The position numbers were made by a program, and so were the translations under genes. Below, in pieces: positions 55,041-59,765 of a stretch of 64,000 nt of DNA (its first letter is position 1; each line of letters begins with the position of its first letter). The notes under the pieces were generated by a model. It was given only the letters and a program-made list of their open reading frames with translations, had not been told where the DNA came from and ran no database searches. Origin of the DNA: Thermosynechococcaceae cyanobacterium Okahandja (lineage in GTDB: Bacteria; Cyanobacteriota; Cyanobacteriia; Thermosynechococcales; Thermosynechococcaceae); contig CP136945.1 in NCBI GenBank assembly GCA_041530395.1, positions 1,984,001-2,048,000 of the forward strand. The letters run 5' to 3'.

Positions 55041-56000
55041 GTGTTTGCCACCCTTACCCCTTCCCAGCCTCCCCTACCCCGCGACTTAGTGACGGCGATT
55101 CAATCCTTGAAGCAGGAATTGAATGCGGTAATCTTGGCGCACTACTACCAAGACCCGGCCATTCAAGATGTAGCGGACTATATTGGCGACTCGCTGGGCT
55201 TGTCGCGTCAGGCCGCCCAGACCACGGCGGATGTGATTGTGTTTGCTGGGGTTCACTTCATGGCCGAAACCGCCAAAATCCTCAACCCCGATAAGCTGGT
55301 GTTGCTGCCGGATTTAGCGGCAGGCTGCTCCCTTGCCGATAGCTGTCCTGCCGAGGCCTTTGCCGCCTTTAAGGCGCAGCACCCCGACCATTTAGTGATT
55401 TCCTACATTAACTGCACCGCCGAGATTAAAGCCCTCAGCGATATTATTTGCACCAGTGCCAACGCCGTTAACATTATCCAGCAACTACCCCCCGATCAAC
55501 CCCTGATTTTTGCCCCCGATCGCAACCTAGGGCGCTACGTGATGGCACAAACGGGACGGCCAATGGTGCTATGGGAGGGCAGTTGTATTGTCCACGAAAC
55601 GTTTTCCGAACGGCGCATTCTGGAACTAAAAGCTCAGCATCCTACCGCCCAAGTGATTGCCCATCCGGAGTGTGAGGAAGGGGTACTCCGCCACGCGGAT
55701 TTTATTGGTTCGACCACGGCGCTGCTGAACTATAGCGACACCCAAACCCACGATACGTTTATTGTGGTTACCGAGCCGGGAATTTTGCACCAAATGCAGC
55801 GGCGCAATCCCACCAAAACCTTTATTCCAGCCCCCCCGCAGGATCACACCTGCAACTGTAATGAATGTCCCTTTATGCGCTTGAACACGCTAGAAAAGCT
55901 ATACCTGTGTATGCGCGATCGCCAGCCCCAGATTGAGCTACCGGAAGAGATTCGGCGGGCGGCTCTTAAGCCCATTCAGCGGATGCTAGACCTTTCCTAG
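55041..56000 (+). CDS. nadA: Quinolinate synthase
   Basis: 319 residues. Iron-sulphur enzyme that makes quinolinate for NAD. Three cluster cysteines in [17 protein letters not shown] and [28 protein letters not shown] and the [20 protein letters not shown] block are standard. GTG start with AAAGGA upstream. Its 3' end overlaps glcF by 15 bp, convergent. Confidence 0.96.
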
Positions 56001-57314
56001 GGGTTCGCCGCGAATGGCGCTAGCGAGTAACTGCATGGGGTGGTAAATCGGCACCCGAGCGCCTTGCTCTTGCAGGTGACGGTTGAGTTGCACGCTACAG
56101 CCGACGTTGGCGGAGACAATGACATCGGGACGGGTATTGAGGAGGTGGCGCACCTTCTGCCGCCCCAATTCTGCTGCAATCTCCGGCTGGAAGATGTTAT
56201 AAACACCAGCACTACCACAACAGAGGGCGGCATCTACCGGTTCGCGCAATTGCACCTGGGGAATTTGCCGCAGCAGTTGACGCGGTTCAAGGCGAATCTT
56301 TTGGCCGTGGATCATATGGCAGGCATCCTGATAAACCAACGTCAAGGGACGATCGCTTAAGGGGTGGAGGGGGGTCACCAATCCCCTTTGGGCTAAAAAT
56401 ACCTGCACATCCTCGACCTTGGCCACAAACGCCCGGGCGCGATCGCCATAGTCAGCATCCGCCGCCAGTAGGTGATGATACTCCTTTAGGGTGTGACCAC
56501 AACCGGACGCATTAATCAGTACCGCATCCACCGCCGCCGTCTCAAAGCAATCAATCATGTTTCGCGCCAGATCTTGCGCTTGGCGCTCTTCCCCTTGGTG
56601 GTGCGGCAGGGCACCACAACAGCCTTGCTGGGGGGGTAGAACCACCTCAAAGCCATTGGCACTGAGTACCGCAATGGTGGCCTCATTAACCGCAGGTAAA
56701 AATAGCCGCTGCACACACCCCAGAATCACGCCAACCCGACCGCGCCGCTCCCCTTGTGCCGGAATCACCGTGGGCTGGGGATCCCGAAAACTGGCCGCCG
56801 AAAGGGGTGGCAGCATCTGGTACATGGCCGCAAGGGGCTTCGGCAACAGGCGCGTGAGCAGCCCTAAGCGCCGCTCGATTGCGCCTAATCCGAGGGCTTG
56901 GTACCCCCACAGGGGCAGCAGCAGGGCACGCAGGCGGTTGGGATAGGGCAGGGTTTGGAAAATAAACCGGCGGAAGAGTTGGGTAATGGCTGGACGGGGA
57001 TAGTTGCGCTGTACTTGGGCACGGGTTGCGGTAATTAGCTTGTCGTACTGCACCCCCGAGGGACAGGTGGTGACACAGGCCAAGCAACCTAAACAGGTAT
57101 CGAAGTGGTGAGCCACATCCTCCAGTGCCGCCTCACCGTTATTAATGGCATCCATCAGATAGATGCGCCCGCGGGGCGAATCGGCTTCGGTGCCCAATAC
57201 CCGATAACTGGGGCAGGTGGCCAAGCAAAAACCGCAATGCACGCAGGCATCAATAAGCTGTGGGCTAGGGGGAGAGTGCGGATCAAACCCCACCACCGGA
57301 TCAGTTGCTGTCAT
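55986..57314 (-). CDS. glcF: Glycolate dehydrogenase iron-sulphur subunit
   Basis: 442 residues. Two ferredoxin-type 4Fe-4S sites ([28 protein letters not shown]) and two C-terminal CCG motifs ([20 protein letters not shown]). Passes electrons from GlcD/GlcE in photorespiratory glycolate oxidation. It follows glcE with 44 bp between and ends overlapping nadA. glcD is not in the window. Confidence 0.95.
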
Positions 57315-57358: not shown

Positions 57359-58612
57359 CTAGAGTTGACCAACAAACGTGCCAGCCCCAAAGACACCGGT
57401 TGCATCCAATTGTTGCTTAAGATTTCGCATCAATTCAAGGGCATTGCCCCGATAATCCCACGGATCAAGCTGCTGCTTCAGAGCAAGGGGTGCGGCCAAA
57501 AGGGTAACATAACCGGGCTGTACCCACTGGCGCAACTGCTGGATTAACTGCTGTAGGGCGGAAATATCACCGTGAAGATAGGCATAACCCACCCCTGACC
57601 CAACGGCCAACGTGGCTTGGCACTCGCAGTTTAAGCGGCGAGCCTGCTCGTGCAGGTGAACCAGCCCCTTCAGGGCATCGCTGGGACGCAACCCCAACTT
57701 GAGGATTACCTGTTCCGGGGTTGGGTTAAAAATAATCCCCTTGGGTTCCTGAAGCTCTAGGCTCAGGTGACTTGTAGCAGCAATTGCCCCCAAGCGATCG
57801 CCGAGGGTGCCTGTGGCCAGCACCTCTCGTAGGGTATGGAATTCCAACTCCAGCCGTTGTTCGCCGCTGCGCTCTAGAACTAGATCCAGCCGTGCCGGTG
57901 TCAGGGAACTGGCCCACACCGCCTCTAGACCCGCAGCCAAGGCGGCGGTATCCCCACGCAATTGCCACCGCTGCACCGCATCCGGTAGCGGATAGACCCG
58001 CAGCGTCACGTCGGTGAGAATGCCTAAGCTCCCATAGCTGCCAATGAGCAACTTCATCAGATCGTAGCCCGCCACATTTTTCACCACCCGTCCGCCCGCC
58101 TTGACCAGTTGGCCATCACTGCGAATGAACCGCACCCCCAAGCACTGATCCCGCCAAGAACCGTAACGGTGGCGCAGGGTACCGTTGGCTTGGGTGGCCA
58201 AACAGCCGCCAAGGGTGGCGGTTTCCGGGTAAGGGGGATCCGCCGCAATCCACTGACCCGCCGTGGCAAGGTGGCGTTGCAATTGCTGATACCGAATTCC
58301 CACTTGGGTGGTCACGGTCATATCGGCGGCGGCGTGATCAATCACCTGCTGCCATGCCGCCGTGCTTAAGAGCACATCCACTTGGGGCTGCCTCCCGAGC
58401 CAGTTGAGCTTCGTGCCCGCTCCCATAGCTAAAATGCGCCAGCCTTCCCGATGGGCACAGGCCACAACGGCAGCGCCCTCCTCAGGGGTGGCGGGGGTCA
58501 CCATCAGGGCGTGCTCGGGTAAGTAGGGCCGCAACTGGGGTCGGCGATCGCCCAGTTCGGTAACGGGGGTGATGGCCGCCTCCCCCACCAAGGCGGTGAG
58601 TGTCCGTTTCAT
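57359..58612 (-). CDS. glcE: Glycolate dehydrogenase FAD-binding subunit GlcE
   Basis: 417 residues. FAD_binding_4 fold: MVTPATPEEGAAVVACAHRE, MGAGTKLNWLG, PYPETATLGGCLATQANG and KAGGRVVKNVAGYDLMKLLI. The C-terminal region is divergent, as usual for GlcE. It starts immediately after the stop of the response regulator upstream (TAAATG), so the two are one operon. Confidence 0.92.
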   Translation of the reverse strand: MKRTLTALVGEAAITPVTELGDRRPQLRPYLPEHALMVTPATPEEGAAVVACAHREGWRILAMGAGTKLNWLGRQPQVDVLLSTAAWQQVIDHAAADMTVTTQVGIRYQQLQRHLATAGQWIAADPPYPETATLGGCLATQANGTLRHRYGSWRDQCLGVRFIRSDGQLVKAGGRVVKNVAGYDLMKLLIGSYGSLGILTDVTLRVYPLPDAVQRWQLRGDTAALAAGLEAVWASSLTPARLDLVLERSGEQRLELEFHTLREVLATGTLGDRLGAIAATSHLSLELQEPKGIIFNPTPEQVILKLGLRPSDALKGLVHLHEQARRLNCECQATLAVGSGVGYAYLHGDISALQQLIQQLRQWVQPGYVTLLAAPLALKQQLDPWDYRGNALELMRNLKQQLDATGVFGAGTFVGQL

Positions 58613-59476
58613 TTAGTTGCGGGTGGGCAACTCAAACACAAAGCCCTCGTAGTAAAGGATCTGGCCATCCTCACTTTTGACGGGGCGGGCGCTTTCGCAA
58701 ATGGTGGTCACACTCTCATCAACGCGATACACCTTAGACACCAGATTGCGAACCACCCCACGGCTTTGAATTTGCTGCTGAAACTTGTCCCAGGCGCTGC
58801 TGTCCACGTAAGGGCGGGTGGTGTGGTGCTCAATGTCCGCCAGCCAATCTTGGGCATCGGCATAGCCATAGATGCGGGCGAGGGTGTCGTTGACCTTGAA
58901 ATAGACCCCCTCCGGCGAGCTTTGGTAAATACCAACAGCCGCTTCTTCAAACATTTGTCGATATTTTTCTTCCGCTGCTTGCAGCGAAGAGACTAACTCC
59001 CGCCGTTCCTCCACCACTTCCTGTAGCTGCTGGTTTTGCTTCTTGAGCAGGGCATTTTTTTGGCGCAGTTTCCGCTGCAGGAGAGCAATCATCAGTTGGT
59101 TTTTTACCCGTGCCAGCACTTCCGCCTGCTGAAAGGGCTTACTCACGTAATCGGCGGCCCCCACCTCAAAGGCTTTGACCTTGTCAAACACATCATCTAG
59201 CGCACTGATAAAAATCACTGGAATGGATTGGGTTTTAGGATTTTCCTTGAGGGTTTGACACACTTCGTAGCCATTCATGTCCGGCATCATAATATCGAGG
59301 AGAATGATATCCGGTGGCTCCGCTTCAATCCCCATCAGAGCCATCTGACCACTAATGGCACCGCGGACATCGTAGCCCTCCATTTGCAGCAGGGCTGTCA
59401 AGACTTCAACATTCTCCGGGGTATCATCGACAATTAAGATGCGACCTGCCCCTGCATCAAAGAGGTCGGTGGTCAT
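58613..59476 (-). CDS. Response regulator with PAS domain
   Basis: 287 residues from ATG 59476 (MTTDLFDAG); an ATG at 59491 adds five. An N-terminal receiver (LIVDDTPENVEVLTALLQME, phospho-Asp in IILLDIMMPDMNGYEV, YVSKPFQ), a coiled coil (~125-165: LRQKNALLKKQNQQLQEVVE) and a C-terminal PAS domain (YRQMFEEAAVGIYQSSPEG). No HTH or enzymatic output domain. It is followed without gap by glcE. Confidence 0.9.
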   Translation of the reverse strand: MTTDLFDAGAGRILIVDDTPENVEVLTALLQMEGYDVRGAISGQMALMGIEAEPPDIILLDIMMPDMNGYEVCQTLKENPKTQSIPVIFISALDDVFDKVKAFEVGAADYVSKPFQQAEVLARVKNQLMIALLQRKLRQKNALLKKQNQQLQEVVEERRELVSSLQAAEEKYRQMFEEAAVGIYQSSPEGVYFKVNDTLARIYGYADAQDWLADIEHHTTRPYVDSSAWDKFQQQIQSRGVVRNLVSKVYRVDESVTTICESARPVKSEDGQILYYEGFVFELPTRN

Positions 59477-59765
59477 GCGGTGGTCTCCCAATGGCGATCG
59501 CGCATCAGTGCGCTAATACCCCCCATCCTATCAAATCTCTGTCGCTCTCCTAGGGGGCGATCGCCCCACTGAAACAGCACCGTTTAGGGTGCGACGAAAT
59601 TTCTATGCTTGCCTAGCCAACAACGAAACTCTAAGCTACTATTATAGATCCAGTCAGAAAGTGTTCGAGCGATCGCTGGTATCATTGCGTATGGCACCCA
59701 CTCTGCCCGCTTGAGAACTCACTATACATCTTACTTTTCGTTAAAGGAGCTAGGAACATACTCGC

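What the first reader, a model, noticed from the sequence alone, without database searches (positions are those of the whole stretch)
58613..59476. Response regulator-PAS protein fused into the glycolate dehydrogenase operon
The response regulator stop and glcE start are back to back (TAAATG), followed by glcF. The regulator lacks a DNA-binding or enzymatic output but has a PAS domain and a coiled coil. A protein-level signalling link to photorespiration is suggested.
Basis: partly seen in the sequence, partly recalled or inferred. Interest (0 to 1): 0.5.

Follow-up and report, generated by a model that had tools for sequence, protein, structure and literature searches.

The report
Signalling gene heading glycolate dehydrogenase operon
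In one lineage of cyanobacteria a small signalling protein gene sits directly in front of two genes for an enzyme of glycolate salvage; they are probably transcribed together, but nothing yet shows that the protein controls the enzyme.

Summary
On the minus strand a 287-aa response regulator (58613-59476) ends TAA directly against the ATG of a glcE-like gene (57359-58612); a glcF-like gene follows 44 bp on. The regulator is a receiver domain, a 62-residue helix and a PAS-type domain, with no recognised output domain. The trio is a conserved block: adjacent in 12 of 13 family genomes with the regulator, including two other genera, with a 4-nt ATGA stop/start overlap in the nine other same-genus genomes with an intact junction, while flanking genes differ. 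It is clade-limited: 14 of 388 class genomes have a close stand-alone regulator (E <= 1e-70), it is not beside glcE in the one of these outside the family, and 18 of 30 glcE loci examined have no regulator match beside them. In the closest relative, IS605-type copies lie exactly at the junction and the halves are 0.95 Mb apart, both intact. The regulator changes more slowly than GlcE in 8 of 8 pairs; against GlcF the difference vanishes in the two deepest pairs. Best reading: a lineage-specific operon headed by an adaptor-type REC-PAS regulator that shares expression with glcEF but probably acts at least partly elsewhere. A direct link to glycolate oxidation is possible but unshown.

The parts
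58613..59476 (-). REC-helix-PAS response regulator, 287 aa, no recognised output domain; D17 D18 D61 S91 K113 invariant in 14 of 14 aligned sequences (window included; their catalytic role is recalled)
57359..58612 (-). glcE-like FAD-binding subunit; ATG abuts the regulator's stop
55986..57314 (-). glcF-like Fe-S (CCG domain) subunit, 44 bp after glcE
58610..58615 (-). junction TAA|ATG (stop of regulator, start of glcE); CCATGA overlap in the nine other same-genus genomes with an intact junction
59521..59535 (-). TTTGATAGGATGGGG, promoter-like block (could be an extended -10, TGATAGGAT), identical in 11 of 11 genus genomes and ending 44 bp before the regulator's ATG; not seen in G012 or G019; not called by the simple sigma-70 scan
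59477..59520 (-). probable 5' leader: inverted repeat (GTCAG-N4-CTGAC in nine relatives, degenerate here and in G003) and GGGAG motif

Best explanation
This is a three-gene operon, regulator-glcE-glcF, that most likely arose once in the ancestor of this genus and two sister genera. Transcription probably starts just before the regulator, and glcE is probably translated by coupling to the regulator's stop codon (inferred from the ATGA/TAAATG junctions). The regulator is a receiver with all expected phosphorylation residues, joined by a long helix to a PAS domain. Phosphorylation by a kinase encoded elsewhere and/or a ligand in the PAS domain would change its dimer state, and it would then act by binding another protein, since no DNA-binding or enzyme part is recognised (inferred). 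Sharing a transcript ties its amount to that of GlcEF. Its partner is probably not GlcEF alone, because it changes more slowly than GlcE and is kept where the operon is broken.
For: Junction and domains. Adjacent in 12 of 13 family genomes with the regulator at E <= 1e-60. ATGA overlap in nine genomes. The trio is the only gene-order block shared by the contexts of G000, the G001/G005/G008 group, G012 and G019 in the 14-16 kb stretches compared. A glcE+glcF tree groups the genus with G012 and G019 (supports 1.000, 0.994, 0.990), which suits one origin. Promoter-like block identical in 11 of 11 genus genomes, also in G003 where the regulator is alone. dN regulator/glcE/glcF 0.032/0.124/0.087 (G000-G003) and 0.067/0.219/0.148 (G000-G001); over 8 pairs dN of glcE is 1.4 to 3.9 times that of the regulator. 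Receiver residues invariant in 14 of 14.
Against: No transcript data were available. The scan found no sigma-70 promoter (0 found, 1.2 expected), and the promoter-like block is not seen in G012 or G019. Control: tight co-directional pairs are kept in 8 of 14 (G019 to G003), 9 of 15 (G019 to G001), 5 of 5 (G019 to G000), 11 of 16 (G001 to G003), 3 of 5 (G000 to G001) and 12 of 14 (G000 to G003) cases, counts that can include the trio's own pairs, so the conservation is ordinary for an operon. Against GlcF the regulator is slower by up to 2.7 times in near pairs but equal in G000-G019 and G012-G019 (ratios 1.07 and 0.99). Low dN may reflect folding demands rather than another partner. The date of the split in G003 is unknown.
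Confidence: 0.5

Rival explanations
1. The regulator is a dedicated partner of GlcDEF: phosphorylated or ligand-bound, it binds the complex and changes glycolate oxidation, for example in response to carbon supply or redox state.
For: Conserved adjacency while both flanks changed and a tree that suits a single origin; no recognised output domain, so a protein partner is expected; in the deepest pairs it changes at the same rate as GlcF.
Against: 14 of 16 family genomes without the regulator at E <= 1e-60 still have a strong GlcE match; G035 has the regulator apart from glcD-glcE-glcF; G003 keeps both after separation; regulator changes more slowly than GlcE in 8 of 8 pairs.
Confidence: 0.25
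2. Passenger: the regulator and glcEF came together by chance, share a transcript and have unrelated jobs; the order is kept because breaking a translationally coupled junction harms glcE expression.
For: Control shows that half or more of tight pairs are kept over similar distances; split found in G003 with both parts intact; linkage limited to one clade in the genomes examined.
Against: The order survived in three genera in different surroundings. The two sister-genus genomes have a looser junction (about 100 bp in G012; in G019 a 19-nt gap or 35-nt overlap depending on the start codon) and still keep the order.
Confidence: 0.2
3. A decayed regulator that lost its cyclase or kinase output and is now non-functional.
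For: Nearest outside homologues mostly carry cyclase, second PAS or kinase domains.
Against: dN/dS 0.024 to 0.086 in the six pairs where it could be computed, invariant receiver residues in 14 of 14, same architecture in G035 of another family.
Confidence: 0.03

Closest known systems
REC-PAS response regulators without output domain (described for archaea, mostly methanogens, in PMC5847659; passages read)
   Same: Receiver plus PAS and no obvious output; the paper expects dimerisation and/or ligand-dependent changes that affect protein interactions
   Different: Here a cyanobacterial protein with a 62-residue helix, encoded first in an operon with glcE and glcF
Cyanobacterial REC-PAS-class III nucleotide cyclases (G037, G033, G030, G079 here)
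   Same: 43-50% identity over receiver, helix and PAS domain
   Different: The cyclase domain is absent here
Other stand-alone REC-PAS-like proteins of cyanobacteria (L070 Chroococcus sp., 273 aa; L071 Pegethrix bostrychoides, 268 aa)
   Same: Receiver and a C-terminal part of similar length, no output domain in Pfam; 43-44% identity
   Different: More distant; Pfam finds PAS in L070 but not in L071; their surroundings were not examined
RssB-type adaptor response regulators (3f7a found by Foldseek; adaptor role recalled)
   Same: Receiver, signalling helix and a C-terminal domain; works by protein contact (recalled)
   Different: C-terminal fold differs (recalled); whole-chain superposition is poor (rmsd 11.8)
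glcDEF operon of Cupriavidus necator (PMC7486775; passages read)
   Same: glcE and glcF subunits side by side
   Different: glcD is elsewhere and a response regulator takes the head of the operon

Membership tests
REC-PAS response regulator without output | Receiver domain with complete phosphorylation site | tested here: met
   PF00072 E 2.8e-31; D17, D18, D61, S91, K113 invariant in 14 of 14 (roles recalled)
REC-PAS response regulator without output | PAS domain | tested here: met
   PAS-like order of strands and helices in the model; Pfam below cut-off in the window protein and L050, above it in L049 and L051; no PAS-named row among the 50 Foldseek matches shown
REC-PAS response regulator without output | No DNA-binding or enzymatic domain | tested here: met
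   (25 of 103 NCBIfam rows seen)
REC-PAS-class III cyclase | Guanylate_cyc domain (PF00211) | tested here: not met
   absent; present in L052, L053, L054, L068
Glycolate dehydrogenase GlcDEF | GlcE and GlcF above curated equivalog cut-offs | tested here: not met
   149.2 of 284 and 319.7 of 333 bits, although GlcE and GlcF are the best models
Glycolate dehydrogenase GlcDEF | GlcD in the same genome | tested here: inconclusive
   one full-length match, 563.4 of 567.9 bits
Glycolate dehydrogenase GlcDEF | Enzyme activity on glycolate | not testable with these tools
   needs assay
Operon | Close co-directional genes kept together while flanks change | tested here: met
   one exception, G003
Operon | Single transcript | not testable with these tools
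   needs RNA data

The most novel reading that the evidence does not exclude
The regulator is a phosphorylation- and ligand-controlled subunit or adaptor of glycolate dehydrogenase, a direct two-component control of photorespiration at the protein level.
Probability: 0.12. Interest if true: 0.65.

Novelty: new member of a known kind. Interest (0 to 1): 0.27.

Why it matters
Four literature searches for a two-component regulator of glycolate dehydrogenase or phosphoglycolate salvage in cyanobacteria (0 papers; 2; 15, 12 listed; 9) gave no title or abstract beginning that describes such a link; apart from passages of one of these papers (PMC7486775) only the listings were seen. If this regulator did act on glycolate oxidation it would open that step to study. 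As it stands it is a clear, testable operon in one cyanobacterial lineage, and the relative in which insertion-element copies separate the two halves is a ready natural comparison.

Tried and rejected
Rejected: chance neighbours with no shared unit (junction and block conservation); a protein fusion (separate reading frames); a truncated pseudogene (dN/dS). PMC9953108, a survey of two-component genes in thermophilic cyanobacteria, was seen in passages; 'glycolate' occurs 0 times in the text held. Two further paper searches served to find these background papers.

Limits: in the class search only the 6 best candidates per genome were scored, and in the relatives search at most 42. The class sample was drawn from a larger group. 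The 30 glcE loci are the best-scoring ones of 56 genomes with a match, with about 1.5 kb held upstream, and only about 0.6 kb in L035. The conservation control used 20 stretches of 20 kb each from three genomes plus the trio regions, with ORFs called mechanically. The tree holds 21 genomes: of the 30 loci, 22 were picked for the script and 21 gave both proteins as full ORFs; it is a gene tree, rooted at the midpoint. The dN/dS values are simple pairwise counts, with dS high or beyond measure in several pairs, and do not isolate the branch after the split in G003. In G003 the two halves end in similar IS copies (97% over 900 bp and 95% over 139 bp), so the long-range separation could in principle be an assembly error through the repeat, but the element at the junction would stand. 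The names rpsA and nadA for neighbouring genes were given by eye from the translations, not from a family search.

Full report
What is there. On the minus strand, window 58613-59476 encodes a 287-residue response regulator. Its TAA is followed at once by the ATG of a GlcE-like gene (57359-58612), and a GlcF-like gene (55986-57314) starts 44 bp after that. The regulator has a strong receiver domain. The PAS match is below the cut-off in this protein and passes a cut-off in two of three orthologues scanned. The predicted structure (mean pLDDT 90.9) is a receiver, one helix of 62 residues and a PAS-like arrangement of strands and helices, with no stretch left for an output domain. The 50 Foldseek matches shown were receiver or receiver-plus-other-domain structures, none named PAS. 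Five receiver residues expected to form the phosphorylation site (role recalled) are invariant in the 14 sequences aligned, window included.

Enzyme names. GlcE and GlcF are the best NCBIfam models for the two downstream genes, but neither reaches its equivalog cut-off. One full-length GlcD match lies about 164 kb away, just under its cut-off. The label glycolate dehydrogenase is therefore inference from similarity.

Is the linkage real? Of 29 genomes of the family (window genome included), 13 have the regulator at E <= 1e-60, and in 12 of these it is next to glcE. In the nine other same-genus genomes with an intact junction the regulator's TGA overlaps the glcE ATG by four bases, ATGA. In G012 the gap is about 100 bp. 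In G019 it is a 19-nt gap or a 35-nt overlap, depending on the glcE start codon. Flanking genes differ: an S1-like gene (named by eye) in the window genome, a BFA1-like (DUF3598) gene in the G001/G005/G008 group, a biotin ligase and dapB in G012, a Uma2 gene in G019. In the 14-16 kb stretches compared the trio is the only gene-order block common to all four contexts. A tree of GlcE plus GlcF from 21 genomes groups the genus with G012 and G019 (supports 1.000, 0.994, 0.990), so the linkage most likely arose once.

How special is that? A control on sampled stretches found tight co-directional gene pairs still adjacent in 8 of 14 (G019 to G003), 9 of 15 (G019 to G001), 5 of 5 (G019 to G000), 11 of 16 (G001 to G003), 3 of 5 (G000 to G001) and 12 of 14 (G000 to G003) cases; the counts can include the trio's own pairs. 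The trio behaves like an ordinary operon, not an extraordinary one.

Evidence against a tight functional bond. First, in the closest relative, G003 (regulator 94% identical), the regulator lies at 0.437 Mb and glcEF at 1.390 Mb. Similar stretches with an IS605-type OrfB begin within a few bases of the regulator's stop and end within a few bases of the glcE start, and all three reading frames are intact. Only the OrfB frame beside the regulator was scanned with Pfam (201 aa); the one beside glcE is 97% identical to it in protein. Second, 16 of 29 family genomes lack the regulator at the threshold used, yet 14 of those 16 have a strong GlcE match. Of the 30 glcE loci held, 18 had no match to the regulator beside glcE at E 1e-3; G003 is one of the 18. 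Third, in G035, the one genome outside the family with a close stand-alone orthologue, the regulator has other genes on both sides, and glcE lies on another contig behind glcD. Fourth, the non-synonymous rate of glcE is 1.4 to 3.9 times that of the regulator in 8 of 8 genome pairs. For glcF the ratio is 1.5 to 2.7 in six pairs but 1.07 in G000-G019 and 0.99 in G012-G019. The regulator is thus clearly slower than GlcE but not always slower than GlcF, which weakens this argument.

Origin of the regulator. In the class-wide search 19 of 388 genomes passed E <= 1e-70. Fourteen have the stand-alone form. The other five lie in longer frames: two with a cyclase domain (G037, G079), two with a second PAS domain (G202, G260) and one with histidine kinase domains (G111, frame cut by the locus end). 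Two further homologues from the relatives search, G033 and G030, also carry a cyclase. More distant stand-alone proteins exist too: L070 and L071 of named cyanobacteria have a receiver and no output domain in Pfam, with PAS found in L070 only. The regulator thus resembles the front half of cyanobacterial REC-PAS-cyclase proteins. Whether an output was lost or never gained was not tested.

Likely mechanism. Shown: the gene order, junctions, receiver domain and selection. Inferred: one transcript from the conserved block TTTGATAGGATGGGG (identical in 11 of 11 genus genomes, not seen in G012 or G019; not called by the generic promoter scan), translational coupling at the junction, phosphorylation by an unlinked kinase, and action through protein contacts of a helix-joined dimer. 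Output-less REC-PAS regulators are a described kind, for which dimerisation and protein interaction are the expected output (PMC5847659, passages read).

Verdict. The photorespiration signalling idea is possible and testable and is supported by nothing beyond co-location.

Noticed in passing
window 55986-56000: The 3' ends of a nadA-like gene (+, named by eye) and glcF (-) overlap by 15 bp, convergent; in G003 the two genes also overlap convergently by 15 bp (8796-8810 in L056).
   Followed up: no
window 59477-59520; L040-L048 upstream of the regulator: Inverted repeat GTCAG-N4-CTGAC between the promoter-like block and the regulator start in nine of nine relatives, degenerate in the window genome and G003; matches of the pattern searched: 1 in G001, 2 in G006, 0 in G000 and G003.
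   Followed up: partly
L055 7728-8912 and L056 5112-6170: Similar stretches with an IS605-type OrfB at the broken ends in G003 suggest insertion at the junction followed by recombination between copies.
   Followed up: partly
L057 3391-5628: In G012 the longest frame of a Ser/Thr protein kinase with WD40 repeats overlaps the end of glcF by 4 bp on the same strand, a second signalling gene beside these genes.
   Followed up: no
L019 / L048: glcE of draft genome G010 has in-frame stops or a frame shift near residue 265, and its end matches another contig; either a sequencing error or a broken gene.
   Followed up: no
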